Shown here one piece after another: positions 390-14,452 of a DNA stretch of 64,000 bases. The stretch covers positions 1,110,152 to 1,174,151 of the forward strand of contig CANNEK010000001.1 in NCBI GenBank assembly GCA_947503625.1, given 5' to 3'. Position numbers and translations under genes: made by a program. Below the pieces are notes generated by a model, which did no database searches, was not told the origin of the DNA, and saw only the letters and a list, made by a program, of their open reading frames with translations. Source of the stretch: an uncultured Kordiimonas sp. (GTDB taxonomy: Bacteria; Pseudomonadota; Alphaproteobacteria; Sphingomonadales; Kordiimonadaceae). Positions within the stretch are counted from its first letter, which is position 1. The number at the start of each line of letters is the position of its first letter.

Positions 390-2582
390 CTAATGAACAG
401 CAGATTTTTTGACGCTCACGACCGTCGATTTGAAAGATGGGGTTTTGCTCTTTTCGTCAACATCAGTAGCTGTCAGGATATTGGCTTCTGGATAGTAAGC
501 CATCATAGATCCTTTAGGGAGATCAAATTCATATACCGTCACGCCCTCCATCACACCCTGCCCTGAACGGACATCAACCGTATCTCCGGTCTGCACACCA
601 GCCACCGACATATCCGAACGGTTCATCAGAACCGACCAGCGCGTTTCAGTGCCGCGGTAGGTGTCATGGTTTTCATAGATTATCGAATTGAACTGACCTT
701 CGCTGCGAATTGTGGTTAGAATGTAGGTGCCTGTTTCGGCGCAGGCCTTCTTTTCTTCTGGTAAGGGTCGTGTGACGAACTGCGCTTTACCCTGAGGCCG
801 ATCAAAGCGCGGCTTATGCATAAGCCGATTCTGGATATGAAATTCTTTTTTTGCGACGTCGATATCCGTAAGGGCCTCCATACCGGGGATAATTTCGGAT
901 ATTGCCTTGCGTATTTCCTTATGTTTACCGAACTCACTGAAATCAATTGGTGAATCTGGCAGTATCAGCTTGGCAAGTTCAGCTAATATGACGCTCTCAG
1001 GACGCACGTTTTCCAGGCGGCGAATACCTCCATCTGATAGTCGCACATAGTTGAACATGGATTCCTGAGTTGTTGGCTCCCATTCTTCATCTCGAGCTGT
1101 TACAGGCAAAACAAGGCTGTCGCCGCTATCAACTCCCTCCAGGTGACCCTTGTTCAAGGTTGTTGTCAGGAACAACTTAAAGCCAATTTTGTCCAGAGCG
1201 CCAGCAGCCCATACCGAATTCGGGTTCGCCGCAAAAAGATTGCCACCCATAATCACTGCGGCATCAATTTCACCTTCCGCCGCAGCCTTCATCGAGGCCA
1301 TGGTATCCAGGCCCTTTTTTTCAGGAAACTTCATGCCAAAACGCTTTTCTGTAAGGGCAATTATATCCTCAGGCAGAACAGGTTTAACGCCGATGGTGCC
1401 AATACCTTGCACATTGGAATGGCCGCGCAACGGCAACAAGCCTTTGAATCTGTGCCCCACCATACCGCGCAGCAATGCCAAGTTTGCGATATATTCAATA
1501 TTGCCTACGCCGTGCAAGTGATGGGTCATACCCATTCCCCATGCAAAAACGGCAGAGGACGAACGTCCGTATATCGCAGCGGCTTGCTCAATATTGACTT
1601 TTTCGACACCGGACCGCTCTACGATAGTGTCCCAGCTGAGAGCCGCGACATCACTCTTGAAATCATCAAAACCCGTTACATGTTCGTTGATAAAAGGGCT
1701 GTCCTCATCAGCGTTTTCAAGAACTGCCTTGGCAATACCTTTAAAAAGCGCGATGTCTTCACCAATTTTTGGCTGCAGGTATAGAGATGCAATTTCGTCG
1801 CCGCCAAGCAACAATGATTTCGGACTTTTTGGTAAGGCAAACTTTACCAGACCCGGCTCACGCGCTGGATTAATCATGATCACATGGCCGCCGCGCGCGC
1901 GGCAAGCCTGCAACTTGTGAATGAACCGGGGATGATTGGAGGATGGGTTGGCACCTATCACAAAAACAAGATCACACCCGGACAGGTCATCCAGCTCAAT
2001 TGTCGCTGTTCCTGTTCCTATTGTCTCACCAAGAGCAACGCTTGTAGCCTGATGACAGTAGAAGGAGCAGTTGGTGACATTGTTTGTGCCATACATTCTG
2101 GCCACGAGCTGGAAAAGAAAGCCTGCCTCGTTTGATGAACGCCCGGAAGAATAGAAGAAGGACCTGTCAGGATCTGTTGTACGAAGCCGTTCAGCAGCAA
2201 TCTCAAGAGCCCTTTTCCAAGAAATCGGCGAGTATTTATCTTCATCTTTCGACTTAAAAATCGGTGTATCCAAGCGGCCCAGTTTTTCGGTTTGCCTGGC
2301 ATCCAGTTCTCTCAGCTCGCACAATGAGTGTGTAAATATCTCATGAGGAATCGCGGGCTGGATATCCGTTGATTGAGCCTGAACACTTTTGTTACAAACT
2401 GAAGGAAATTCGCCAGCCTCATTGGTCATTCCCCCTTGCTGGCCACCCATACCCAACGCGCAGGCTTTGCAAACATTCTTGCTGTTGAGCGCTTTTGCAG
2501 CCTTTCCCGGCCCTATTTTCCGCAGCGTATTCAAGGTATAAAGAACCTTCTTGGCGCCGCCGCCGATTACCTCTTTAGCCAT
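390..2582 (-). CDS. FdhF/YdeP-family molybdopterin oxidoreductase (formate dehydrogenase alpha-like)
   Basis: About 730 aa, the usual length of the FdhF/YdeP group, which binds bis-molybdopterin guanine dinucleotide. The N-terminus has VCKACALGMGG (about residues 37-47): the first two cysteines of the usual [4Fe-4S] motif are there, but the third is replaced, as is typical of this group. The likely metal-ligand region is NCSFYCHQ, with Cys at about 176 followed by His. The C-terminal MopB-binding domain is present (TTIRSEGQFNSI, then SGQGVMEGVTVYEF). I start at the ATG at 2582, which overlaps the end of mobA; a TTG lies two codons earlier. Pairing with mobA supports a Mo-bis-MGD enzyme. YdeP relatives have been linked to acid resistance, and real formate dehydrogenase activity is not established. 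No twin-arginine signal is visible, so it is probably cytoplasmic. Confidence 0.85.
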   Translation of the reverse strand: MAKEVIGGGAKKVLYTLNTLRKIGPGKAAKALNSKNVCKACALGMGGQQGGMTNEAGEFPSVCNKSVQAQSTDIQPAIPHEIFTHSLCELRELDARQTEKLGRLDTPIFKSKDEDKYSPISWKRALEIAAERLRTTDPDRSFFYSSGRSSNEAGFLFQLVARMYGTNNVTNCSFYCHQATSVALGETIGTGTATIELDDLSGCDLVFVIGANPSSNHPRFIHKLQACRARGGHVIMINPAREPGLVKFALPKSPKSLLLGGDEIASLYLQPKIGEDIALFKGIAKAVLENADEDSPFINEHVTGFDDFKSDVAALSWDTIVERSGVEKVNIEQAAAIYGRSSSAVFAWGMGMTHHLHGVGNIEYIANLALLRGMVGHRFKGLLPLRGHSNVQGIGTIGVKPVLPEDIIALTEKRFGMKFPEKKGLDTMASMKAAAEGEIDAAVIMGGNLFAANPNSVWAAGALDKIGFKLFLTTTLNKGHLEGVDSGDSLVLPVTARDEEWEPTTQESMFNYVRLSDGGIRRLENVRPESVILAELAKLILPDSPIDFSEFGKHKEIRKAISEIIPGMEALTDIDVAKKEFHIQNRLMHKPRFDRPQGKAQFVTRPLPEEKKACAETGTYILTTIRSEGQFNSIIYENHDTYRGTETRWSVLMNRSDMSVAGVQTGDTVDVRSGQGVMEGVTVYEFDLPKGSMMAYYPEANILTATDVDEKSKTPSFKSTVVSVKKSAVH

Positions 2583-3189
2583 AGTCAACCGTCAACTTCC
2601 TCTCCGCAACACGAAGGTCTGCGCGAGTATTTATATTCATGAAGGCGTCTTCATCATCAAACATGCAGGGGGAATAATTGCACAACTCCGCCAATCGATA
2701 AAGAGAAGGGCTTTTGGTTATGCCGTGCGCTGCAAACCCTGCCAACAATACTTCTGTTGACCACAGCCCACACGTTGGGTGCAATTGATTTCCGGTTTTC
2801 GCTACAGCAGTTGGCCCAAGCGATGTCATTCGTTCAACATAATTCAAGGGAATAAATGGCATATCAACTGCTACGGTCAGAAAAGCACCAGTATGCTTAA
2901 ACCGCTGTGCTAACGCATACAATCCTGCAGCCGGGCCTTTTACAAAACCATCACAATCAGCAACCGTCTCCATATTCAATCCAAAACTATCGGGCGCCGA
3001 AATTACGATATTTTCGGTTTGATCCGCTAGCCGATCCAGAACCCGGTCAATAAGGCGAACACCTCCCAAAAGCGCCGTCGTCTTTTCCCCGCTCAGAAAA
3101 CGGCGATTACGACCGCCAGCCAAAACACCAACTGGAACTGTTTTCGGTATAGAACAGGGCATATCACTACCGGTTTTTTTGCGAGTCAC
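2575..3189 (-). CDS. mobA: Molybdenum cofactor guanylyltransferase MobA
   Basis: A 204-aa protein, normal for MobA. It attaches GMP from GTP to molybdopterin to make the MGD cofactor needed by the oxidoreductase encoded immediately downstream. The nucleotide-binding signature is seen as VLAGGRNRRFLSGEKTTALLGG near residues 23-44, a variant of GGxSxRMGxDK with a 2-residue insertion. Further on are VAVDMPFIPL (the metal-binding Asp loop) and HPTCGLW, both typical of MobA. The start is a GTG at 3189; an internal ATG at 3162 (MPCSIPKTVPVG) is possible. Its end overlaps the next gene by 8 bp (TATGGCTAA), so the two are translationally coupled. Confidence 0.85.
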   Translation of the reverse strand: MTRKKTGSDMPCSIPKTVPVGVLAGGRNRRFLSGEKTTALLGGVRLIDRVLDRLADQTENIVISAPDSFGLNMETVADCDGFVKGPAAGLYALAQRFKHTGAFLTVAVDMPFIPLNYVERMTSLGPTAVAKTGNQLHPTCGLWSTEVLLAGFAAHGITKSPSLYRLAELCNYSPCMFDDEDAFMNINTRADLRVAERKLTVDYG

Positions 3190-3451
3190 CCGACAAGATC
3201 AGAAGAAAGTCAGTTTGCTCGGAATATCTCCGCGTTAAAGCTAGCTGAGGTGAATAACTTTTGCCATGTCGAAATACCTCACTATTTCATACTGCCGACA
3301 TAATGTCCGCCACCGGTTAAAGCGCAGATGGGAGCCATGCTCTCGTTCGGTCAGCCATTCTGTTTCTCGGTAATCGATACGTTGCAATTTGATTGAGGTG
3401 GCATTAGTGTAGTTATACACATTGGGGGCCATCCAAAGGGGAGGTGGCTAA

Positions 3452-3679
3452 TTGTCGTATTCAAATCGCGATATTTTGACTTTGTCACAACTTGTTGCTG
3501 CAGAACGGGGTACGAGCGCAGTTGATCATGTCAGCGGATATGTGGACATACTTCGCAACAATGGTGACCAACAAAGCGCCAAATTATGGTCCATGGTTTT
3601 GGCAGATCTGTACCATCAGTCCATCGCTACCGGTTGCGCAGACCTTCACCCTAGAGCGGCAAATGGTGTCTTGCTTTAA
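3452..3679 (+). CDS. Small hypothetical protein, TTG start
   Basis: A 75-aa protein. The start is a TTG preceded by a strong Shine-Dalgarno (AAAGGGGAGGT at 3435-3445, spacing about 6), which is the main reason to accept this frame. The segment YVDILRNNGDQQSAKLWSMVLADLYHQ looks like small helical alphaproteobacterial proteins of unknown function with an A-x-x-W-x-x-V pattern. The gene stands alone, converges on the REC-GGDEF-EAL gene and stops 6 bp before it. The opposite-strand frame at 3241-3432 and the overlapping frame at 3492-3770 lack such a site. Function unknown. Confidence 0.5.
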   Translation: MSYSNRDILTLSQLVAAERGTSAVDHVSGYVDILRNNGDQQSAKLWSMVLADLYHQSIATGCADLHPRAANGVLL

Positions 3680-3685
3680 GGCGGC

Positions 3686-5398
3686 TCAAACGCTTGCTGG
3701 CAGGTACTGTATTTCGGCCTCAGACAATAGTGATGTGAATTCACGGTTTGGCAGCGGCTTGCTGAAATAAAACCCCTGCATTTCATCTTTGGCAAGGAGC
3801 ATCAGAGTCTCAAATTGGGATTTCTTCTCCACACCTTCAGCAACCAGTACCAAATCCAATTCATTAGCAAGCAGAGATACGACATTGCATATCTTGCGGC
3901 TTGCTGCGGAGGTTTCGATTTGCTGCACAAATGACCGATCAAGTTTGATCTTGGAAACAGGAATATCCTTCAATCGACTGAGCGAAGAGTAACCCACGCC
4001 AAAGTCGTCAATCGCCCACTTGCAACCGATGTCCGCCAGCGCCTTCAGCTGTTTTTCCAAGTGATTGAATTGTTGAACGAGTGCCGTCTCTGTAATCTCA
4101 AATTCAATCATTTTTGGGTCGATACGGTATGCTCGGAGCGTGCGCTTCACATGTTTAACAAAACCTTCGGTCTGGATCTGGATCGGTGAAACATTAACCG
4201 AGATCGGCACAATCGCTATCCCGGCGTCCATCCATGCTCGCATATGGCGGCAAGTTTCTTCAAATACCCACTGCCCTATCTCGCGGATACACAAGGAACG
4301 CTCCGCAATCGGAATAAAGTCTGAAGGGCCAATTGGTTCTGCATTCTTGCGATTCCAGCGCAACAGGGCTTCAGCGCCGCAAATCTGCTGGTTGTAGGCC
4401 CGAACCTTGGGCTGAAAAAAAAGTTCCAGCTCCTCGTTGGTAATTGCGTTGGCCAAAGCGTTTTCCGTTTCTGCTGCCTTGGTAAGCAACACTCCGATTT
4501 CTTCGTCAAAAAACGCGAAAGAGTTTTTACCGTTGCTTTTGGCTTTATATAGCGCACCATCAGCGGCTCTTGTTAGCCCGGATGCGCTGCGGTCAGGATG
4601 CTCCGGATTCAAAATTGCAATACCAAGACTGCATTTGCAATGAAAGGACTGATCCCCGAACTGAATAGGGTCTTCAAACACTCGCAGCATCTTGCGTGTC
4701 AGCAACTTGATATCCTGCTCATGTTTGTAGCCGTTAAGCACAACGCCAAACTCGTCGCCTCCGAGGCGCGCCACAATATCGGTTTTGCGCACCATGGAGG
4801 ACATCCGACTCGCAACTGTTTGTAGAACGTGGTCGCCAGCCGGGTGGCCATACGTATCATTGATTATCTTGAAGTCGTCCAGATCGATCAGAAACAGCGC
4901 CAGATAGGTAGCCGCGCGTTCCGATGTACCAATCGCAAGTTCGAGTGTCTGATCAAATCTGATACGATTTGCCAGCCCGGTGAGCCCGTCAGTATAGGCA
5001 TACTCGGAGAGCTTTTTCTGGTTCTGCATTTGAGCAAGGCTGAAGCGAATTGAACGGTTTAGCAGCGTAGCCGTCAACTCGTTTTTCACCAGATAATCGG
5101 TTGCTCCAATTTCAGCAGCCTGCCTGTCCACCTCATGGTTATCTTCACCGGTCAAAAGAATGATTGGTGTGAAACTGCCATGTCCATTGGAATTCCGGAT
5201 AATATCAATGCCCGAAAATGCACCCATATTCTGATCTACAAGACAGATATCATGCCCGTTGATTTCTTTTTGCAGGCTGGCATCGCCGGGATCAGAAATC
5301 CAAGAAACGTCTGGCTTATCGCTGGCGAACGCCCGATTGAGGAAACGTTCGATTAACAGAAAATCAACCTCGTCGTCGTCTACAACAAGTATACGCAT
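3686..5398 (-). CDS. Response regulator with GGDEF and EAL domains (c-di-GMP synthesis/breakdown)
   Basis: A 570-aa cytoplasmic protein in three parts. The receiver domain (1-120) has acidic DDD at 7-9, phospho-acceptor D55 and the conserved K in LVKNE near 105. The diguanylate cyclase domain (about 130-300) has an intact GGDEF at 213-217. The phosphodiesterase domain (about 310-565) has intact EALLRW at 343-348, IDDFGVGYSSL and VAEGVE. Both enzyme sites look complete, so the sequence does not tell which activity dominates; phosphorylation presumably sets it. It is the last gene of the signalling operon, 138 bp after the single-domain regulator, and is the probable output of the kinase upstream. 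Confidence 0.92.
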   Translation of the reverse strand: MRILVVDDDEVDFLLIERFLNRAFASDKPDVSWISDPGDASLQKEINGHDICLVDQNMGAFSGIDIIRNSNGHGSFTPIILLTGEDNHEVDRQAAEIGATDYLVKNELTATLLNRSIRFSLAQMQNQKKLSEYAYTDGLTGLANRIRFDQTLELAIGTSERAATYLALFLIDLDDFKIINDTYGHPAGDHVLQTVASRMSSMVRKTDIVARLGGDEFGVVLNGYKHEQDIKLLTRKMLRVFEDPIQFGDQSFHCKCSLGIAILNPEHPDRSASGLTRAADGALYKAKSNGKNSFAFFDEEIGVLLTKAAETENALANAITNEELELFFQPKVRAYNQQICGAEALLRWNRKNAEPIGPSDFIPIAERSLCIREIGQWVFEETCRHMRAWMDAGIAIVPISVNVSPIQIQTEGFVKHVKRTLRAYRIDPKMIEFEITETALVQQFNHLEKQLKALADIGCKWAIDDFGVGYSSLSRLKDIPVSKIKLDRSFVQQIETSAASRKICNVVSLLANELDLVLVAEGVEKKSQFETLMLLAKDEMQGFYFSKPLPNREFTSLLSEAEIQYLPASV

Positions 5399-5536
5399 GT
5401 GGGCCTTAGCTCCATGATGCGCTTATCCCCAAATTCACGCCTCGTTTGCATCCAAACTGTATGATGAGAAAAACAGGTTAAGATAAATTAAACACCATGG
5501 TTGTTTTTGATACAATATTTCGATTATTACGAGCAT

Positions 5537-5962
5537 TTACGGCAATTCAACAATTTTCCAATAGTGGTCAAGCATTGAAAGCGCTTGATTGAAGGTGTTT
5601 TCCGCATCTGATTTCACAACGTAACCTGCAATATTCTTTTCATAAGCCGCACAAACATCGCGTTCATCTGATGATGTGGTCATGACGAAAATAACGGACT
5701 TGTGCAACTCGGGGTCTTGGCGAACTTCTTCAAGAAACTCCAGACCACCCATGCGCGGCATATTCAGGTCCAATAGAATAAGATACGGCGGTTCGAGTTT
5801 TGCTTTGCCATTAGTTCCTTTGAGGTATTCAAGACCCTCGACACCATCACAGGCATGTATCAGCGGATTGGCAATTTTGAGGCGCTGCAAAGCCCTTTTG
5901 ACACCGATAACGTCAACCTCGTCGTCCTCAACCAGCAACAATCCAACTTCTTTTCGCATCAT
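5537..5962 (-). CDS. Single-domain response regulator (Rcp1/CheY-like)
   Basis: A 141-aa receiver domain with no output domain. Acidic residues VEDDE at 11-15, phospho-acceptor D65 in LILLDLNMPRMGG, T in VMTTSSDE and K in GYVVKSD are all present. The long alpha4 region and the YWKIVELP C-terminus are typical of Rcp1-like regulators, which partner PAS/phytochrome-type kinases. It overlaps the end of the PAS histidine kinase gene by 4 bp (ATGA), so it is almost certainly that kinase's phosphorylation partner. It may relay phosphate to, or compete with, the REC-GGDEF-EAL protein. Confidence 0.92.
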   Translation of the reverse strand: MMRKEVGLLLVEDDEVDVIGVKRALQRLKIANPLIHACDGVEGLEYLKGTNGKAKLEPPYLILLDLNMPRMGGLEFLEEVRQDPELHKSVIFVMTTSSDERDVCAAYEKNIAGYVVKSDAENTFNQALSMLDHYWKIVELP

Positions 5963-8712
5963 TTTTTCTCAACTTTAGGAAAGGAAAAACAGAAAGCAAC
6001 ACCGCTTCCGTCGACAGGCTCTTCAATCCAGATGCGGCCGCCACGCCGTGTGACAATCTTCTTTACAATTGCCAATCCCATGCCGCTTCCCTCCACCTGA
6101 TCGCGGGGTTTCAGCGTCTGAAACATCTTGAACACTTTATCCCACATATCCTCTGGTATGCCGATACCACGATCTTCAAACCGGAAGACATACTCCCCGT
6201 CACCAAGAGAGCAGCCTATCTCTACGCGGCACGGTGCGGCCTCATTATGTTTGACCGTATTGCTTATCAGATTCTGGAATATCTGGTTCATTTCGGAACT
6301 CGAGCAAACGATTGCAGGAAGTTCGCAGTTGATTTCAAAACCCTTGTTTTGGGCCTCCAGCAAGTCAGCAGCAACCTCGACAAGCATGTTGAGGTCGGTT
6401 TTCGCCAACTTGTCACTGCCCTCACCAACGCGAGAGTATTCCAACAATCCGGCGAGCAGGCTTTCCAAGCGGGAAATACGGTTTTTCAGCAAAGACAAAT
6501 AAGAATTTGTTTCTTCATCTGCCGTTTCCTGAATGTTTTCCTGAATCCAGTCGGCCAGATTCATAATACCGCGTAGTGGTGCCTTAAGGTCATGGGAGGC
6601 AATATAGGCGAATTGCTCAAGGTCTGCGTTTGAACGGGCAAGGTCTTTCACATGACCCTGAAGGATCTGCTCGGCTTTAACGCGGGCAGAAATATCACGG
6701 ATAATACCGACAAAACCAGCTGTTGCCGAATTTTCTGAAATCTCTCCGACACTTAACTCCATGGGGAATTTATCACCGTGCTTGCGCCTGCCTGTGACCT
6801 CGCGGCCCATCCCAATAATCTTGGGTTTTTTTGTCGAGAGATAGTTGGTCAAATACCCATCATGTTGGCCTTTATCGGGGTCAGGCATAAGAATGCGCAC
6901 ATTCTTTCCCGTCACCTCTGCTTCCGAATAGCCGAACAGTTTTTGTGCAGACTTGTTGAAAGTCTGTATTGCCCCCTTGGGGTCTATGATTATGATTGCA
7001 TCAGCTGCGGTATCAATGATCGTCGAAAGCCGGTTTGTCAGTTCGCTTTGTTCCGCCAACGCTGCGGTCAAGTTTTTTTCAGCTGATTTTAGTGTGTGAA
7101 TATCCTGAACGGACCCAACCATTCGAACGGCTCTGCCCTCTTCATCCCATGAGGCTTGTCCAGAGCCCCGAAACCAGCGATAACTTCCCTGCTTGGTCTT
7201 CAGACGATATTCAGCATCAAAAGGCTCTTTTCTCGTAAAGTGCGCATCGAGCGCAGCAAATGTATGTTCGTGATCGTCCGGATGTAAGAGGTCTCTGAAA
7301 ACCGATAGGTTAGCCTCAATCTCCTCGTTCTCATATCCAAGCAACTTGAAGAACTGCGGTGACCAGTATTCCTTATCATCATTTACATCTATCCAGTCCC
7401 AAATACCGACCGAGGCCCCTTGCGCCGCAAGAGCAAAGCGCTCTTCACTGTCTCGCAGATCTTCCTGAGCTGCAATCACATCTGTGATGTCTTGCGAGAC
7501 AACAAAAACCCCGCGCTCGCCGTTTTCCTCATCAACAAATGGAACCTTGTCAGTACGCACCCAGCCACGCTCACCGTCAACTGGGGTATATTCTTCAACG
7601 ATGCCCAGCATGGCCTTCCCTGAGTTAATGACGGCGAGGTCATCGTCATGATACTTTTTGGCCATCTCGGGAAAAAGATCGTACGTATCCTGACCCTCCG
7701 TGTTTTCAACCTTGCGCCCCATGGAATTGGCTGCCTCCCGGTTCAAACGCAGAATGCGGTTTTTGTCATCCTTGTACCAGATACGTACCGGCACATTATC
7801 AAAGATCAGTTGCAAATCGCGGCGTTGCCGACTGAGTTCCGCGTCTGTCGCAAGCAGTTGCTGAAAAGGGGCAATAATGAGCCTGAAACCTACCAGCGTT
7901 ATGAAGGCAAATGCTACAAGCGCAGCAATGGCAAGGCTGACACTGTAGCTTTTTATCAGTTCAGCTTCCTGGTTTTTAAAAGGTGTTATGTCGTTGATCA
8001 GGGTTAAAGTGATGCCATACGGTTCAATTTGCGAATTTTGAGAGAAAGGGTCGACGATCCGCTCCGTCCCCCATGAAAGTGTAGTTCTTTCCGTGCTCAA
8101 CTTTACCGCCGCTGCACCTTCTCTCAAACCCGTCGCAACGATATCCGCAACCTTGAACGGCAATACCGTACCAAGAATGCCTTCTGTGCCGGCGCCATAT
8201 AGCACCGGAACAGCAATCAGCAGGTACGTGCCGCTTGAATTTTCCACCAACTCTACAGTCTGCGGTATCTGATCCGAAAGAATGGAGCGTGCCATTTGAT
8301 GCACTGCGGCTTCTGCTTCACTGTCCGTCGCCTCAGTGGAATACAGCACCAAACCGTCGATATCGAATAGTATCAACGGAGCGGAAGTGCCCAGAATTTT
8401 CGAGCTATTTAACAGACTTGAAGCTTCCAAACTCTGGCCGTCGGCAAGCATTGCTGCGGTAATGACTGGCTGCTGCGAGGCGATATCGCGCAGCACCGTC
8501 ACCCTGTCATCAACAAAAATCTTTACATCCTGCACCTCCAGGTCTAACGCCAACGTGTTGGTACTCAGCAAAAAATCGGCGTAGGTGGATTGCACTTTGG
8601 GGATAATGATGGAGCTCACAACCACAAGAAAAACCGCGAATGAGACTGCCGTGAATAGCAAATACTGTTGCAGAACAGAATGACGGTCACTGGTGGAGGT
8701 TCGATTGATCAA
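5959..8712 (-). CDS. Membrane-bound multi-PAS sensor histidine kinase
   Basis: A 917-aa protein. One membrane helix near 17-36 and a second near 258-282 enclose a periplasmic sensor region of about 220 aa. Several PAS/PAC domains follow (IFDNVPVRIWYKDD; GIWDWIDVNDDKEYW; TIIDTAADAIIIIDP). The HisKA domain has the phospho-acceptor His in YIASHDLKAPLRG, and the ATPase domain has N-box NLISNTVKHN, G1 DRGIGIP and G2 GSGMGLAIV, all intact. The gene overlaps the binding-protein gene upstream and the response regulator downstream by 4 bp each. This suggests that the binding protein presents a ligand to the periplasmic domain, as in LuxP-LuxQ or TorT-TorS. The ligand cannot be read from the sequence. 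Confidence 0.92.
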   Translation of the reverse strand: MINRTSTSDRHSVLQQYLLFTAVSFAVFLVVVSSIIIPKVQSTYADFLLSTNTLALDLEVQDVKIFVDDRVTVLRDIASQQPVITAAMLADGQSLEASSLLNSSKILGTSAPLILFDIDGLVLYSTEATDSEAEAAVHQMARSILSDQIPQTVELVENSSGTYLLIAVPVLYGAGTEGILGTVLPFKVADIVATGLREGAAAVKLSTERTTLSWGTERIVDPFSQNSQIEPYGITLTLINDITPFKNQEAELIKSYSVSLAIAALVAFAFITLVGFRLIIAPFQQLLATDAELSRQRRDLQLIFDNVPVRIWYKDDKNRILRLNREAANSMGRKVENTEGQDTYDLFPEMAKKYHDDDLAVINSGKAMLGIVEEYTPVDGERGWVRTDKVPFVDEENGERGVFVVSQDITDVIAAQEDLRDSEERFALAAQGASVGIWDWIDVNDDKEYWSPQFFKLLGYENEEIEANLSVFRDLLHPDDHEHTFAALDAHFTRKEPFDAEYRLKTKQGSYRWFRGSGQASWDEEGRAVRMVGSVQDIHTLKSAEKNLTAALAEQSELTNRLSTIIDTAADAIIIIDPKGAIQTFNKSAQKLFGYSEAEVTGKNVRILMPDPDKGQHDGYLTNYLSTKKPKIIGMGREVTGRRKHGDKFPMELSVGEISENSATAGFVGIIRDISARVKAEQILQGHVKDLARSNADLEQFAYIASHDLKAPLRGIMNLADWIQENIQETADEETNSYLSLLKNRISRLESLLAGLLEYSRVGEGSDKLAKTDLNMLVEVAADLLEAQNKGFEINCELPAIVCSSSEMNQIFQNLISNTVKHNEAAPCRVEIGCSLGDGEYVFRFEDRGIGIPEDMWDKVFKMFQTLKPRDQVEGSGMGLAIVKKIVTRRGGRIWIEEPVDGSGVAFCFSFPKVEKK

Positions 8713-9944
8713 CGGTCTGCACCTCGCTGATCCAGAACTATATCACCCGCCAAGTTGTATTCCGCCATGCAATAGTCTTCCGGTCCAAGCGCTTCATGGG
8801 CATTTGGCCTCAGGTTTTCTTCATAGACGCCAAAGGGTTTATTGTAGGTTTTAACCAATCCTTTCACGGGCTGCGCCAGACTTTCAAGAGCCTTTCGAAC
8901 AGCGTTCCTGTCCTCCATCATATTGCCAGAAAGGCCCGCCTGCCCAATGGCTGCCAACAGAATTCTGGTCGCGTCATAAGCATGTATGAACCCGACCGGT
9001 GATGAAACGTCACTGGCACCTTCTATATCGGGAAACAGTTTGACCGCTCTTTTAAGTACTTTCTCTCCCAGCGAAGTCATCAACTCCGTGTTGAAGGAAA
9101 AACAAGACTGAACAAATGAAAGATCAACCCTCGAAAAGCGGTCGGCACCGACCATATCAAAAAAGCCGCCACCTGTAATGCCCCAGTGGCTGATGATCGG
9201 CATTTTAGTCTCTGGACTTGCATCAGCCATGGCGGAAACAATGGCCCCTCCTTCGATTGCATTGCCAACCAGCAGAATGCAGTCGTTGCCCTCACGGGCG
9301 ATCTTCTGCAAGAGGATATCGGCCCCGCTATCTTTAAGGTTCATCCCGAAGCGGGTTACGGAAAGCGGGCGGATGTCTCTTTCTTCCAATCGATCGCTCA
9401 TGGCAACCAGATTAGAAGCACCCCACGGGGTGTTTTCAAGCAAGAGGTGTGGGGCCGCGCATCGCACTGTGTCCAGTGCGTAATCAACGAGTTGCCTTCC
9501 AGCTCGAGAATCGTCAAGCGACACCCTGAAAATCCAGTTTTCCGAAGAAGGGTAGCGAGTGATCGGTGCGCCCGCAGCCCAGGGCACCATCGTCAGCGCT
9601 TTATTTTCATTGATGAATTTACGGTTTCTAATAAGAGGCGGTGAATGAATGCCTGAAAAAATGATAAGAGCATCATCGTCAGCCAGAAAGGCGTCATAAT
9701 TGCGTTTGCTACGTAAAACGTTACCCCGATGGTCCAGCGGCACAAACTCTATTGCGTACCCGGCAACCTGATATTCAACCTCATCAAGCGCCGTCAGGAT
9801 ACCGCGCTCAATAGCGACGGCAGATCCAATATGATTGGACCTGTCGGCATCCTGATAAATACGGATAACCTTGTCTTGGGCTCCAATCGAGCAAGAAGAC
9901 AAAAACAAAACACCAAGAAATGTGAGTGACTTTATGAACGCCAT
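8709..9944 (-). CDS. Periplasmic binding lipoprotein, type I fold (ABC-type/branched-chain amino acid-like)
   Basis: A 411-aa protein with a lipoprotein signal, lipobox LSSC with Cys18. The rest resembles type I periplasmic binding proteins (Peripla_BP_6): VIRIYQDADRSNHIG, an N-terminal lobe with IIFSGIHSPPL, a hinge region and LLVGNAIEGGAIVSAM. No ABC permease or ATPase gene is nearby, so it probably does not serve transport. It is coupled to the histidine kinase by a 4-bp overlap and most likely works as its ligand-sensing partner in the periplasm. Its Shine-Dalgarno AGGGAAG overlaps the stop codon of the Tsx-like gene. The ligand is unknown; a nucleoside is possible given the neighbouring channel. 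Confidence 0.8.
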   Translation of the reverse strand: MAFIKSLTFLGVLFLSSCSIGAQDKVIRIYQDADRSNHIGSAVAIERGILTALDEVEYQVAGYAIEFVPLDHRGNVLRSKRNYDAFLADDDALIIFSGIHSPPLIRNRKFINENKALTMVPWAAGAPITRYPSSENWIFRVSLDDSRAGRQLVDYALDTVRCAAPHLLLENTPWGASNLVAMSDRLEERDIRPLSVTRFGMNLKDSGADILLQKIAREGNDCILLVGNAIEGGAIVSAMADASPETKMPIISHWGITGGGFFDMVGADRFSRVDLSFVQSCFSFNTELMTSLGEKVLKRAVKLFPDIEGASDVSSPVGFIHAYDATRILLAAIGQAGLSGNMMEDRNAVRKALESLAQPVKGLVKTYNKPFGVYEENLRPNAHEALGPEDYCMAEYNLAGDIVLDQRGADR

Positions 9945-9953
9945 AGAACTTCC

Positions 9954-10679
9954 CTAGAAAACATATCTTAGCTGAACCTGGAAGACAGACTCGTCAACAC
10001 CAGCCAAACCAAACTTGTTGTTCCAATAGATGTATTCGCTACCGAGCATGATATGCCCGGGCTTCCCCCAATTATTGCCAATATCGACAAGTGCACTGGC
10101 CTGAACGAGCTCGTTCGCCACCCGGCTACCTTCTCCGCCGGTCATATCCGCAAAACCGTCAAGCCACAGTTTCTGGGTCCCAAGCTCCAGCGGCAATCCC
10201 CAGGAAATGGTCATCTGTTCAGTTGTACCGGGGAGGCTTGGGTTGTTGCGTCTGTAAACGTTTGTTTTCAGATACGAGAAGCCCGGAACTTGCCAATCCA
10301 TGCCGAAACCGAACAAATATCGGTTTGCACCGGAAGCAAATTCGAACGTCGAGGCAATCAGGATATCTTTAATCGGGCCAACAGCGAGCGAACGCCCTGA
10401 TATCTTGCCCAAGCTAAGGCGGGGGTGTAGCTCAGCGTAACTGTTCCCAGTGCTGTCGAAATCTGCAAAAGCAAAGGTGTCGCCGTAGCGCCACCTGTTG
10501 CCATGCATGAATGTGACTGTTGTGCGTGACCGGTCACCCAGCTCAAATGCCCACCCCCGCAACAATTGTACATTGGTGGATTGCCATTCCAGAATGTCCG
10601 CATTGGCGGTTTCAGTTGTCCAGAGCAATAACACCAACCCCAGCGCCGCAGTCCGAAAAATATCCCGGCGCATACTCAT
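9954..10679 (-). CDS. Tsx/OmpK-like outer membrane channel
   Basis: A 241-aa protein with a signal peptide (about 1-27). The mature part has Tsx-family features: WQSTNVQLLRGWAFELG, TVTFMHGNRWRYGDTFAFADF, alternating aromatic beta strands, and a C-terminal phenylalanine (LRYVF) as needed for beta-barrel insertion. Tsx proteins let nucleosides through the outer membrane. It sits between a kinase gene (4-bp overlap upstream) and the binding-protein gene (9-bp gap). This is an unusual place for a porin and suggests it feeds the sensed ligand into the periplasm. Substrate specificity is inferred from the family only. Confidence 0.75.
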   Translation of the reverse strand: MSMRRDIFRTAALGLVLLLWTTETANADILEWQSTNVQLLRGWAFELGDRSRTTVTFMHGNRWRYGDTFAFADFDSTGNSYAELHPRLSLGKISGRSLAVGPIKDILIASTFEFASGANRYLFGFGMDWQVPGFSYLKTNVYRRNNPSLPGTTEQMTISWGLPLELGTQKLWLDGFADMTGGEGSRVANELVQASALVDIGNNWGKPGHIMLGSEYIYWNNKFGLAGVDESVFQVQLRYVF

Positions 10680-11833
10680 TTCGCGTGTATCACCTTCACA
10701 TTACTGGAAGCGCAGGGAAACACTATTTGAAAGTCGGTATTGCCATTCTTGAGTGTGTTTATGTTAAGGGCCGCGCCGTGCAATTGAGCTATCCTGTAAG
10801 CTATGGCAAGGCTAAGCCCGACACGGTACACTGAATCTGCCGCATAGTTCCTGGAAGGCAACCGAAAGGGCTGTGTCATTTGCATTAAAGGGATGGAGCT
10901 TAGCTTTTCGCACAAACCTTCAATCTTGATACAAACTCCACCAGCATCCTCGGATAGTGTTAGCGTTAGAATTTCACCCGAGCGGGTCAAGTCGCAGGCG
11001 CTTGCCAGAATATTGAGCAGCATGCGGTGCACCGCACGTTCATCCGCGTCAATCAATACCACCTGATCCTGCAGTTTTGCCCTAACATCAACTCTACGGG
11101 CTGTTGCTGCATAGTGTGCGGCACTTACGACGTTCGGCAAAAGCGATGTGAGATCACATCTCGCCTTGGTTATATCCACGTTGCTGGTTTCAAATTGTGT
11201 AAGCAGCATGATGTCATCGATCATGGAAGTAAGATGGTTGCCGCTGGAATGAATCAACTTCAGATACTCAGCCACATCAGTGCTAAAACCTTTTTCCCCC
11301 ATGAGCAGTTCAGAGAACCCAACAATAGCATTCAGCGGCGTACGCAGGTCATGGCTCATGTTTGAAAGGAATGTGGCTTTTGCCTCGTCTGCCGCCCGGG
11401 CTTCGTCACGGGCCAATCTCAGATCGAGTTCCAACCTGCGGGTTTCACCTACGTATCTGAGTGTTCTCTCAAGTTGCTGCTCGTCGAGCTTGCTTTTATC
11501 CAGATAGTCATAGGCACCGGCCCTCATCGCTGCGATATCTGCATCGTACTGGCTGTTGCCAGTCAGCATAACCAAGGGAGTCCCGGCTTCCCGTCCCCCA
11601 ACAGCAGCGAGAAAATCGATGCCAGAGTGCGGCCCGATCGCGTAATCTACAAGTGCCAGGTCGAACTTCTGAGCTGCCAGGAAAGATATACCTTCGGCAT
11701 ATGTCTGTGCCCAGATCAGTTCGAAATTGAAATTGGGGATACGACCAAGCAGTGCCTTGACCCATTGTTGGTCAAGCACATCATCTTCTATCAATAAAAG
11801 ACGATAACTGGCAGCCACGCTAGGATCATGCAC
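10676..11833 (-). CDS. Receiver-histidine kinase hybrid with degenerate ATPase domain
   Basis: A 385-aa soluble protein. The N-terminal receiver (about 10-130) has EDDVLD, phospho-acceptor D in LALVDYAIG and K in YLDKSK. The HisKA domain (about 165-230) has His in FLSNMSHDLRTPLNAIVGFSE. The C-terminal ATPase-like domain (about 250-375) is degenerate. The N-box reads LLNILASACDLT, without the essential second Asn. No DxGxG box is present (the region reads IKIEGLCEK). G2 survives only as VGLSLAI. It may be a phosphotransfer or dimerisation partner rather than an active kinase. Start GTG at 11833 with AGGGG upstream. It is the first gene of the signalling operon, and its stop overlaps the Tsx-like start by 4 bp. 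Confidence 0.82.
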   Translation of the reverse strand: MHDPSVAASYRLLLIEDDVLDQQWVKALLGRIPNFNFELIWAQTYAEGISFLAAQKFDLALVDYAIGPHSGIDFLAAVGGREAGTPLVMLTGNSQYDADIAAMRAGAYDYLDKSKLDEQQLERTLRYVGETRRLELDLRLARDEARAADEAKATFLSNMSHDLRTPLNAIVGFSELLMGEKGFSTDVAEYLKLIHSSGNHLTSMIDDIMLLTQFETSNVDITKARCDLTSLLPNVVSAAHYAATARRVDVRAKLQDQVVLIDADERAVHRMLLNILASACDLTRSGEILTLTLSEDAGGVCIKIEGLCEKLSSIPLMQMTQPFRLPSRNYAADSVYRVGLSLAIAYRIAQLHGAALNINTLKNGNTDFQIVFPCASSNVKVIHAK

Positions 11834-12265
11834 GAAGTTAAACCCCTAAAATCGACCCCCTATAGTCGGCTTAGGCTGCAGAAATAGAATCAAAGGATAT
11901 ATTTATGCAGTTAGTTCGCTAACCAAACTAAGTGCACATAGTTAAATTTCCATAAAGAACAGTTGCATCACGCAGCGGAAACCCGGACACAAATCCATTG
12001 AAACATTGGCATCAAACGAAAACAAATTTATCCCGGTATGCCGAGATGATCAGCGTCGTCGCACCAGATCCGCCGGCTTCATGCCGAGCCTCATACCGAC
12101 AGGGTCTGAAGCCGACATATATTTGGGAAGTTTTAGATACTATATCACCATGGCGTCATAGAGATTAAGCAGACAAATCATATGCTGCTCAAACCTGTGC
12201 AAAGTCCCCAAACAGGCGTGCGAAGCATGCAGCAGTGCACCACTGCTGCATACCGCAGCCAGCGA
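11834..12265. other. Intergenic region between the signalling operon and the chemoreceptor gene
   Basis: About 430 bp with no supported gene. It should hold the promoter of the minus-strand signalling operon (near 11840-11960, AT-rich) and the end of the chemoreceptor transcript (hairpin at 12227-12251). The middle part (about 12040-12130) is GC-richer, with partial internal repeats (ATGCCGAG twice). I could not assign it to a known RNA class. Confidence 0.5.
12227..12251 (-). terminator. Strong hairpin after the chemoreceptor gene
   Basis: A perfect inverted repeat with 11-bp arms (ATGCAGCAGTG / CACTGCTGCAT) and a 3-nt loop, 14 bp downstream of the chemoreceptor stop. No clear U-tract follows on the minus strand, so it may be a Rho-dependent or mRNA-stabilising hairpin rather than a classical terminator. 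Confidence 0.5.
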
Positions 12266-14452
12266 TTAAGCCGTTCTAATATTGTTCAGGAAGTCATCAA
12301 CAGCAACTGACATACTCTGTGCATGTTCGGAAAGAGCACCAGCAACGTTGAGCACCTCTTTGGCACCACTTCCTGTATCGTTCGCCGAAGAACTAACGCT
12401 GGCAATATTCGATGTCACTTCCTGCGTGCCAGCTGCCGCTTCCTGAACACTGCGAGATATCTCACCGGTTGCAGACGCTTGTTGATCGACTGATACGGAA
12501 ATTGTTGTTGCAATTTCGTTCATCTCGTCAATAACCCTGCGTATACTGTCAATTGCAGTAACCGTGCTTTCGCTTTCCTGTTGAATGCTACCGATCTGGG
12601 CCGAAATATCCTCTGTGGCTTTTGCTGTTTGACTGGCTAGTGATTTCACCTCGGAAGCAACCACCGCAAAACCTTTTCCGCTCTCACCCGCTCTGGCAGC
12701 TTCAATAGTGGCATTGAGGGCCAGCAAATTGGTTTGCTCTGCAATATCACTGATCAAATTCACCACGTCTCCAATTTTTTGAGCAGCAGAAGCCAGGCTT
12801 TGCACAGTTGATGTACTCTTCTCTACTTCCTTTACCGCGGTGGATGCGATCTCACTGGACTGGTTAACTTGTCTCCCGATTTCTTCGATCGAAGCCGCAA
12901 GTTCTTCTGCTGCCGAAGCAACAGTCTGAACATTCACAGTTGCTTCTTCGGATGCTGCTGCAACAGCATTTGAACGTTCGCCGGTTTCCTGGGCATTGGA
13001 GGCCATACCGTTGGCAGTTGTCTGCATCTGTTCTGCAGAGGTTGCCACATTCCCGACAACGCCTTTCACACTATGCTCGAATTTGTCGGCAAGTTCGATC
13101 ATCGCTGCGCGCTTTTCTTCCTCTGCCAAAGCCTCAGCTTCGGCCTTTTCGTCTGCAAGCCGCTTCTCTTCTATCTGCTTCCTCTCCAGCGCTTCCTTTT
13201 CTGCTTCAACTTTTTCCGACTGAATTCTATCGATCTCAATGGCATTTTGCCTGAAGACTTCTACCGCGCGCGCCATTTCGCCCATTTCATCTTGGCGATC
13301 CGTTGCCGGAATAGTTGATTGTTTGTCGCCATCGGCAAGTTTTCCCATGGCGGTTGTTAACAAAAGCACCGAAGAAGTAATAAGGCGCCCGATTTGAACC
13401 GCAAAAAAGCCACCAACAATGATAGCGATGATGGAAAATACCACCGCGAAGATTTCAGAGCTTTGGATACTGCTGGTCGCGCGTGGCCCCAGTTCATCTT
13501 GCCGCGATTTGTTGCCCAGTTTAATCTGTTCTACGCTATCGGCGATCCGCGGCCCTATAACATCCAATTGACCTTTAATGACGCCGTTGCGTTCAAAAAT
13601 AACGCTGGTTACATCGCTGAACGCGCGCGAGTATTCCTGCGCATTGTTCACGAGTTCCTGCGCAAGAGCGCGACGTGTGGGGTTTTGAAGAGCCTCAAAC
13701 ATCTCCTGCGCATTGTTGCCAAATGCCTCCAGCTCTGCAGCCGCACGGTCCGCACTGGGTTGCTGGTTATCGACGAGAAAACGATTTGCATACAAGCGAG
13801 CGAGTAACAGATTTCTAAGCGTTTTGCCTGCCATAAAACTTGCTTCCGGATCGCCATCTTCGTACGCGCTCTCCATTATTTGTGTCAGGTTCCTTTCAGC
13901 AGCCGGACCGAGTGTATTCATCTGGTCTACCAGATTGTTTCGCTGGGAACGGAACCCAACGATTTGCTCGAAACCCGCGAGATAGGAGGCAAGTTCTGAA
14001 GACGCGTTTTCCAGCGCGCGAACGTCTTCGCCTACATCATAGTATTGAGCTGCCTGCTGAAACAGTTCGTTGCTTGACTTTACAAGATTTTGGGTGGCGG
14101 CCAGTCTTTCATGAACCATGTTCTTTGCGACATCGCTACCGCTGAGAATGTATTCCTTCGCCCCGAGCCGTACCAAAAGCAAATTTGCCTGCACGCGCCC
14201 AAGTTCATTTGTTTGTCGGGCTGTCGCTCTGTACTCCGTAAAGTTACCAAGAGCACCATACAGACCAAAAAAGGCTACGGAGCTTACCGCAACCAGGAAA
14301 ACCAGGACAACACCAAACCCTATGCCAACTTTCTTTCCAATCCTGTAATTGTCAAACTTGGCCTTCCACCTTGAAAACCAACCGGTTGCAGCCTCAGAAT
14401 AGATATCACCCTGTCTGGTATGAGAAGGTCTGGTGTTTATTGAATCTGCCAC
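12266..14452 (-). CDS. Methyl-accepting chemotaxis protein
   Basis: A 728-aa membrane chemoreceptor. One helix is near 45-65 ([20 protein letters not shown]) and another near 335-355, around a long helical periplasmic sensor of about 270 aa of the helical bimodular type. Then come HAMP (about 358-410) and a long Glu/Lys/Ala-rich coiled coil ([20 protein letters not shown]). The C-terminal signalling domain has the hairpin tip [21 protein letters not shown], the CheA/CheW-binding core. Start GTG at 14452 with AGGGA about 9 nt upstream. It is monocistronic, with no che genes in the window. The ligand is unknown. Confidence 0.93.

What the first reader, a model, noticed from the sequence alone, without database searches (positions are those of the whole stretch)
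3686..11833. Sensing operon combining a porin, a binding lipoprotein, two kinases and a c-di-GMP enzyme
Most junctions are 4-bp overlaps, so a Tsx-like channel, a type I binding protein without ABC transporter, a multi-PAS kinase, a single-domain regulator and a REC-GGDEF-EAL enzyme are made together. The likely flow is channel, binding protein, kinase, c-di-GMP. The ligand is unknown.
Basis: partly seen in the sequence, partly recalled or inferred. Interest (0 to 1): 0.55.

Follow-up and report, generated by a model that had tools for sequence, protein, structure and literature searches.

The report
Binding-protein kinase cluster ending in c-di-GMP
A bacterium carries a tight gene cluster in which a captured small molecule, probably let in by an outer-membrane channel and held by a binding protein, is likely read by a membrane sensor kinase that in turn sets a common internal signal, and the binding protein belongs to a branch that appears to work in sensing rather than nutrient uptake.

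Summary
In detail: six minus-strand genes at 3686-11833 encode a REC-HisKA protein, Tsx-like channel, type I binding protein, three-PAS histidine kinase, single-domain regulator and REC-GGDEF-EAL enzyme. Three of five junctions are 4-bp overlaps; the c-di-GMP gene follows a 138-bp gap holding a promoter-like site. The 385-aa "second kinase" lacks the N-box Asn and DxGxG box: more likely a relay or scaffold.

New evidence: in a 50-row tree, 28 receptor-linked and 22 ABC-linked binding proteins lie on opposite sides of one branch (100/100). The window's nine-row clade includes Pseudomonadota and Nitrospinota; in two members the homologous sensor is fused to GGDEF or GGDEF-EAL. This supports binding protein to sensor to c-di-GMP, LuxPQ-like; interaction is untested, and neighbouring pairs are not always linked (PMC11113362).

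Ligand guess, weak: a nucleobase or nucleoside. The genome's other Tsx homologue neighbours a guanine deaminase; 7 of 11 nearest ABC-linked sisters stand with a cytosine-deaminase-like amidohydrolase.

The Tsx gene was seen beside the pair only here (1 of 28). New variant of a known kind.

The parts
10676..11833 (-). REC-HisKA-degenerate HATPase_c protein, 385 aa, GTG start; REC Asp63 and HisKA His161 kept
10712..11044 (-). its degenerate ATP-binding (CA) domain: N-box Asn replaced by Ser, DxGxG box lost, G2 box weakened
   Evidence: alignment with six kinases and one homologue; Pfam HATPase_c 31.6 bits, still over its 26.4 cut-off
9954..10679 (-). Tsx-like outer-membrane channel, 241 aa
   Evidence: Pfam Channel_Tsx 9.4e-8; relatives at E <= 1e-10 in 10 of 29 family genomes, own genome included
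8709..9944 (-). type I periplasmic binding protein (Peripla_BP_6), 411 aa, putative lipoprotein (Cys18); receptor-linked clade
5959..8712 (-). sensor histidine kinase, 917 aa: TM-dCache-like periplasmic domain-TM-PAS-PAS-PAS-HisKA (His707)-HATPase_c
7942..8601 (-). periplasmic dCache-like sensor domain of the kinase (about residues 38-257)
   Evidence: matched in the receptors of 7 of the 8 other close-clade loci; dCache_1 matched at E <= 0.5 by 21 of 28 aligned sensors, not by this one itself; joint profile matches the sensor protein 3by9 at 1.9e-4
5537..5962 (-). single-domain response regulator, 141 aa, phospho-acceptor Asp65
3686..5398 (-). REC (Asp55)-GGDEF-EAL c-di-GMP enzyme, 570 aa, both active sites intact by motif
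5399..5536 (-). 138-bp gap between regulator and c-di-GMP gene; promoter-like match (9 of 12) at 5550-5523, no terminator-like match inside

Best explanation
This is a binding-protein-dependent two-component system with a c-di-GMP output. A small solute, perhaps a nucleobase or nucleoside, enters through the Tsx-like channel and closes the type I binding protein. The loaded protein docks on the dCache-like periplasmic domain of the 917-aa kinase, as LuxP does on LuxQ, and changes autophosphorylation of His707. Phosphate goes to Asp65 of the single-domain regulator and/or Asp55 of the REC-GGDEF-EAL enzyme, changing c-di-GMP synthesis or breakdown. The REC-HisKA protein with the degenerate ATP site works as a phosphotransfer relay, sink or dimer scaffold among these partners (Spo0B/ChpT-like in logic), not as a second kinase. 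Shown here: gene order, domains, motif state, recurrent pairing of binding protein and receptor, separation from ABC-linked proteins in the tree, fusions of the sensor to GGDEF/EAL in two relatives. Inferred: docking, ligand, phosphotransfer route and direction of the c-di-GMP change.
For: Fifty binding proteins were labelled by the first downstream same-strand gene that matched my query set: 26 kinase, 2 c-di-GMP enzyme (offsets -40 to +60 bp from the end of the match) and 22 ABC (offsets 7 to 308 bp); one branch with 100/100 support parts the 28 from the 22. The nine best tblastn matches of the window's protein among the fetched loci of that stage are all receptor-linked, the lower ones ABC-linked. 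The window's sensor domain is matched in the receptors of L003, L005, L045, L092, L094, L100 and L133, 7 of the 8 other members of its clade, L132 being the miss. Two of the nine have it fused to PAS-GGDEF-EAL (L092) or PAS-GGDEF (L100). dCache-like nature. Overlapping genes. Residues frequent on the receptor side (His72, Arg78, Glu231, His321, Glu354) differ from those of the 11 nearest ABC sisters, whereas Trp122, Arg140, Asp145, Trp174 and Ser252-His253-Trp254 are shared with them, as expected if the partner changed and the ligand cleft did not (inference). Kinase ATP boxes intact, those of the 385-aa protein not. In print, 10 of 11 characterised binding protein-kinase couples are gene neighbours (PMC11113362).
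Against: Neighbouring binding proteins did not interact with the kinases AgtS and AruS of P. aeruginosa (PMC11113362 abstract). The window's sensor does not match dCache_1 alone and its structure model is poor (mean pLDDT 45); outside the close clade the window's sensor was not matched directly in any of the other receptors. The exact six-gene set was seen only in this genome. Of the 26 kinase-linked loci a GGDEF/EAL match within 6 kb was found only in the window and, on the opposite strand, in L099; several loci have short flanks. The c-di-GMP enzyme is offset by 138 bp with a promoter-like match, and its one strong family relative (54%, G009) lies in a genome where the binding protein was not found, although that genome is only 76% complete. 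On the wider ABC side Glu231 (10 of 22) and Glu354 (8 of 22) also occur, so these two are not receptor-only.
Confidence: 0.58

Rival explanations
1. The sensing half is real but the c-di-GMP enzyme is an independent neighbour with its own promoter; the kinase signals through the single-domain regulator to something else (for example the neighbouring chemoreceptor or the relay protein).
For: 138-bp gap before the c-di-GMP gene with a 9-of-12 promoter-like match at 5550-5523; G009 holds a relative of the enzyme (54%) near a Tsx homologue while the binding protein was not found there (76% complete genome); in L003 the pair stands near a single-domain regulator on the opposite strand and no c-di-GMP gene was matched.
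Against: Its REC domain needs a kinase and this one is next to it; two relatives fuse the same kind of sensor to GGDEF/EAL; no terminator-like match lies in the gap.
Confidence: 0.22
2. The binding protein is a co-opted or leftover transport component: the dCache-like domain binds the ligand itself and the two are only neighbours.
For: dCache domains usually bind ligands directly (recalled); non-interacting neighbours are known (PMC11113362 abstract).
Against: The pairing recurs in 28 sampled loci from three named phyla with no ABC gene first downstream, and the six close-clade proteins aligned are only 41-51% identical to the window's, so the pairing is not a recent accident.
Confidence: 0.12
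3. The binding protein feeds an ABC permease encoded elsewhere in the genome and reports uptake to the kinase (dual role).
For: Dual transport/sensing roles of binding proteins are established (PMC9602780, passages).
Against: It is on the other side of the tree from all 22 ABC-linked proteins sampled and differs from the nearest of them at several conserved positions. The genome was not searched for orphan permeases.
Confidence: 0.08

Closest known systems
LuxP-LuxQ (Vibrio AI-2 sensing)
   Same: type I binding protein acting with a membrane kinase that has a two-lobed PAS/Cache-like periplasmic domain (recalled)
   Different: kinase has three PAS domains and no fused REC; NCBIfam LuxQ score 83.6 against a 1200 cut-off; binding protein is Peripla_BP_6, LIV-like; no ligand known; output includes a c-di-GMP enzyme
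NspS-MbaA (polyamine sensing, V. cholerae; PMC8967002 abstract and outline seen)
   Same: binding protein-receptor complex that sets c-di-GMP, with a bifunctional output; relative L092 shares this one-protein logic
   Different: NspS is a different binding-protein class (recalled); here a kinase and regulators stand between sensor and enzyme
TorT-TorS (TMAO)
   Same: periplasmic binding protein plus sensor kinase (recalled; TorS work is in the reference list of PMC11113362)
   Different: kinase scores 92.4 bits against a 676.5 cut-off for TorS and has no fused REC in its Pfam scan
LIV/HAAT-type ABC substrate-binding proteins (closest solved: 4q6w, 4mpt, 4gnr)
   Same: fold and family (4q6w 1.8e-29 by profile; VIA-align Z 28.5, rmsd 4.7, 348 aligned)
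   Different: no permease in the cluster; other side of the tree with different conserved residues
Spo0B / ChpT phosphotransferases (for the 385-aa protein)
   Same: dimerisation domain with phospho-acceptor His and an ATP domain that by motif should not bind ATP (comparison recalled)
   Different: carries its own N-terminal REC; homologous relation not tested

Membership tests
binding-protein-dependent sensor kinase systems (LuxPQ-like mechanism) | periplasmic binding protein gene coupled to a membrane kinase gene | tested here: met
   4-bp overlap here; a receptor gene is the first matched gene downstream in the 28 rows on this side of the tree
binding-protein-dependent sensor kinase systems (LuxPQ-like mechanism) | ligand-dependent contact of binding protein and sensor domain | not testable with these tools
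   no complex prediction or experiment available
LuxQ family proper | score over the NCBIfam LuxQ cut-off | tested here: not met
   83.6 against 1200 bits, match limited to residues 537-912
dCache sensor domains | match to dCache_1 or a solved Cache domain | tested here: inconclusive
   at E <= 0.5, 21 of 28 aligned receptor N-termini match dCache_1 (best 2.9e-9), the window's does not on its own; joint profile hits 3by9 at 1.9e-4 (that 3by9 is a DctB Cache sensor is recalled)
Tsx nucleoside channels | Pfam Channel_Tsx over the gathering score | tested here: met
   32.5 against 27.2 bits
Tsx nucleoside channels | NCBIfam Tsx model over its cut-off | tested here: not met
   23.5 against 311 bits: a distant relative, nucleoside specificity not implied
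Peripla_BP_6 (type I) binding proteins | Pfam gathering score and type I fold | tested here: met
   51.6 against 31.7 bits; (model mean pLDDT 65.8)
active histidine kinases (385-aa protein) | N, G1 and G2 boxes of the ATP domain | tested here: not met
   N-box Asn to Ser, DxGxG absent, although Pfam HATPase_c still passes (31.6 against 26.4 bits)
active histidine kinases (917-aa protein) | HisKA His and N, G1, G2 boxes | tested here: met
   SHDLKAP, NLISN, DRGIGI, GSGMGL
GGDEF-EAL c-di-GMP enzymes | active-site motifs of both domains | tested here: met
   activity itself not testable

The most novel reading that the evidence does not exclude
A widespread, previously unnamed family of type I binding proteins has parted from ABC transport and become dedicated co-receptors for dCache-like receptors of several kinds (kinases, diguanylate cyclases, GGDEF-EAL enzymes). 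In this genome it senses extracellular nucleobases or nucleosides, gated by a Tsx channel, to set c-di-GMP, linking released nucleic-acid breakdown products to attachment or dispersal.
Probability: 0.25. Interest if true: 0.62.

Novelty: new variant of a known kind. Interest (0 to 1): 0.45.

Why it matters
Most sensor kinases and c-di-GMP receptors have no known signal. A branch of binding proteins dedicated to receptors, with nearby ABC-linked sisters whose operon enzymes hint at the ligand class, gives a concrete way to look for signals of many such receptors at once. The natural swap of kinase and GGDEF/EAL outputs behind one kind of sensor would be a test bed for how binding-protein docking is turned into different outputs.

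Tried and rejected
Filing as LuxPQ or TorTS was rejected because family scores are far below the cut-offs, and as NspS-MbaA because the binding-protein class differs (recalled). 'Two kinases' was rejected on the ATP boxes, with the caveat that Pfam HATPase_c still passes. A fold search with the sensor model was not made because the model is poor (pLDDT 45). The binding-protein model (pLDDT 65.8) only confirmed the LIV-like type I fold; its matches include leucine, aromatic-acid, amide, urea and GABA receptors, so the fold does not give the ligand. Promoter and terminator scans gave no more sites than expected from shuffles (12 versus 9.7 and 12 versus 10.1). A search for an empty insertion site failed: in G006, G015 and G018 no other gene of the window's surroundings was found beside the chemoreceptor homologue. 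Relatives outside the window's own phylum could be sought only in genome contigs (two loci) and in plasmids, because the genome search could not be centred on L003. The organism was not identified.

Selection behind the tree: rows come. Fetched were 5 of 31 plasmid records and 20 of the 60 non-own matches listed (two more of those, G361 and G377, were already in). Two weak second matches under 100 bits (in L048 and L099) were dropped before labelling. Receptor or ABC labels come from matches to my own query proteins, not from a curated annotation. Counts of channels and other neighbours depend on a few query proteins and are lower bounds. Label shuffles were as low in 0 of 500 for the kinase and ABC groups but in 5 of 500 for the two-row c-di-GMP group.
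Full report
Observation. Searches confirm six minus-strand genes at 3686-11833, read from high to low coordinate: REC-HisKA-HATPase (385 aa), Tsx-like channel (241), Peripla_BP_6 binding protein (411), kinase with three PAS domains (917), single REC (141), REC-GGDEF-EAL (570). Junctions are -4, +9, -4, -4 and +138 bases; 7 of 33 same-strand junctions in the window are -4 and three of these are here. None of the six is an ABC permease or ATPase. The gaps before (11834-12265) and after (3190-3685) set it apart from its neighbours.

The proteins. The kinase has two strong membrane helices (19-37, 258-276) around a periplasmic domain of about 220 residues. A query of this domain matched the receptors of seven of the eight other loci of the window's clade (best about 1e-24, in L003 and L005; the miss is L132) and none of the more distant receptors. 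Of 28 aligned receptor N-termini 21 match dCache_1 at E up to 0.5, best 2.9e-9, the window's own not among them, and the joint profile finds 3by9 at 1.9e-4 (its identity as a DctB Cache sensor is recalled). The AlphaFold model of the domain is poor and was not used. The kinase's ATP boxes are intact; those of the 385-aa protein are not: Asn to Ser in the N box and no DxGxG, although Pfam HATPase_c still passes at 31.6 bits. A homologue in G009 (35%) also lacks the N-box Asn but keeps DGTG, and lies 8 bp upstream of a CHASE-PAS-PAS-PAS sensor cut by the contig end. Phospho-acceptor residues of all three REC domains and both HisKA domains, and the motifs of both c-di-GMP domains, are present.

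Relatives of the binding protein. In 98 genomes of relatives it was found in 2, its own included. The other, G022, has it after a TonB-dependent-receptor-like gene and before a kinase with the matching sensor; the kinase reading runs to the end of one fetched stretch, and the adjoining stretch opens with REC and BLUF domains that I take to be its C-terminus (joining inferred). Named genomes gave a Nitrospinaceae MAG (51% identity) and a Nitrospirae MAG (33-34%, fused behind a DctP-like domain), both followed by a sensor kinase. Searches of 385 (class), 398 (phylum), 48 and 369 genomes and of plasmids gave more.

Tree. Fifty binding proteins were labelled by the first downstream same-strand gene that matched my queries: 26 kinase, 2 c-di-GMP enzyme, 22 ABC. 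One branch with 100/100 support separates the 22 ABC-linked from the 28 receptor-linked rows; kinase and ABC labels shuffled over the tree were as clustered in 0 of 500 trials. The root is not known, so which state came first is inference. The window sits in a nine-row clade (100/100): window, G022, Nitrospinaceae L003, Pseudoalteromonas megaplasmid L045, L094, L132 and L133 with kinases, and L092 and L100 with sensor-PAS-GGDEF-EAL and sensor-PAS-GGDEF. The clade looks rare: 3 of 369 genomes of one class, the seed genome among them, and 2 of 48 of another, both known before (thresholds 1e-90 and 1e-80). Its scatter over phyla suggests transfer between lineages (inference).

What is conserved. 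The receptor-linked proteins share His72 (22 of 28), Arg78 (28), Glu231 (26), His321 (25) and Glu354 (28), where the 11 nearest ABC sisters have Asp (11), Lys (10), Pro (11), Asn (11) and Tyr (8); over all 22 ABC rows, however, Glu231 occurs in 10 and Glu354 in 8. Trp122, Arg140, Asp145, Trp174, Ser252, His253 and Trp254 occur in 26-28 of 28 and in 11 of 11 of the nearest sisters. My reading is that the partner-facing surface changed while the ligand cleft did not; this needs a good structure.

Ligand hints. Seven of 22 ABC-linked loci, all in the nearer 11-row clade, have an amidohydrolase at E below 1e-8, on the same strand 3.3-4.7 kb away; none of the 28 receptor-linked loci does. At the looser threshold an opposite-strand match also appears in one distal ABC locus (L043). 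The five amidohydrolases scanned score best as PRK05985 amidohydrolase, with cytosine deaminase or a second amidohydrolase model next, all below the curated cut-offs. In the window's own genome the only other Tsx match at E up to 1e-10 (37%) lies between two MFS transporters and near a guanine deaminase over its cut-off (573 against 375 bits). Together these favour a nucleobase, nucleoside or related cyclic amide, at perhaps 0.35. Against it: the receptor-linked loci carry no such enzyme, Tsx here is far from Tsx proper, and solved relatives bind leucine, aromatic acids, amides or urea.

The rest of the cluster. Within 6 kb, a Tsx match stands with the binding protein only in the window (1 of 28); a TonB-receptor-like gene (L005) and a 459-aa porin-like protein (L004) stand there in two others (the porin and TonB labels are my reading of the sequences). 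The REC-GGDEF-EAL gene has one strong relative in 29 family genomes besides itself, in G009 (54%), where it lies 1.4 kb from a Tsx homologue (45%) on the other strand; the binding protein was not found in that genome, which is 76% complete. The 385-aa gene survives in G018 as a broken piece. The six-gene set therefore looks assembled from parts that also occur separately (inference).

Literature. Binding proteins that drive kinases or c-di-GMP enzymes are an accepted kind (PMC11113362: abstract, part 1 of 7 and passages; PMC9602780: passages; PMC8967002: abstract and outline). PMC8846402 (passages) says that of the binding-protein clan only SBP_bac_3 had been studied in c-di-GMP networks; that concerns domains inside the enzymes. 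I found no paper on this family or this gene set in searches (listings only), which cover open-licence papers alone. PMC11113362 also warns that neighbouring pairs may not interact.

Verdict. The broader finding is the receptor-linked branch of binding proteins.

Noticed in passing
L003 8238-8669; L006 39-752; L099 (opposite strand, 3.6 kb from the binding protein): BLUF (blue-light) domains occur near the binding protein-receptor pair in 3 of the 28 loci: a divergent single BLUF (L003), BLUF at the apparent C-terminus of the hybrid kinase (G022, adjoining stretch L006), and a query match on a GGDEF-EAL protein (L099). The first two pass Pfam; the L099 match was not checked. The window's genome has four BLUF matches elsewhere.
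   Followed up: partly
L004 3242-5392; L095, L102, L103, L104, L105, L107: In 7 of 28 receptor-linked loci the type I binding protein is fused behind a DctP-like (TRAP) binding domain (label recalled) and followed by a hybrid kinase: two binding domains in one chain feeding one receptor.
   Followed up: partly
window 12266-14452: A HAMP-MCP chemoreceptor gene lies upstream on the same strand; MCP matches also lie within 6 kb of the pair in L092 and L100. Possible shared signal for taxis and c-di-GMP.
   Followed up: partly
L117 5301-10185 (own genome, contig 6): Second Tsx homologue of the genome, between two MFS transporters and near a guanine deaminase: a likely purine uptake and use cluster.
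   Followed up: yes
L127 7268-8112 (G018): Broken remnant of the 385-aa REC-HisKA gene: frame disrupted and cut before the ATP domain; the binding protein was not found in that genome. The kinase was not searched there.
   Followed up: partly
window 2575-3189: MobA-like gene beside a formate-dehydrogenase-like gene (390-2588, name recalled from sequence); at E <= 1e-25 the MobA gene was found in 1 of 19 genus genomes, its own, so the region downstream of the cluster may also be strain-specific.
   Followed up: partly
L003 5614-7770: A hybrid kinase with an N-terminal periplasmic region that looks like a type II binding domain (label recalled, not scanned) lies 1.2 kb from the binding protein in the Nitrospinaceae MAG.
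   Followed up: no
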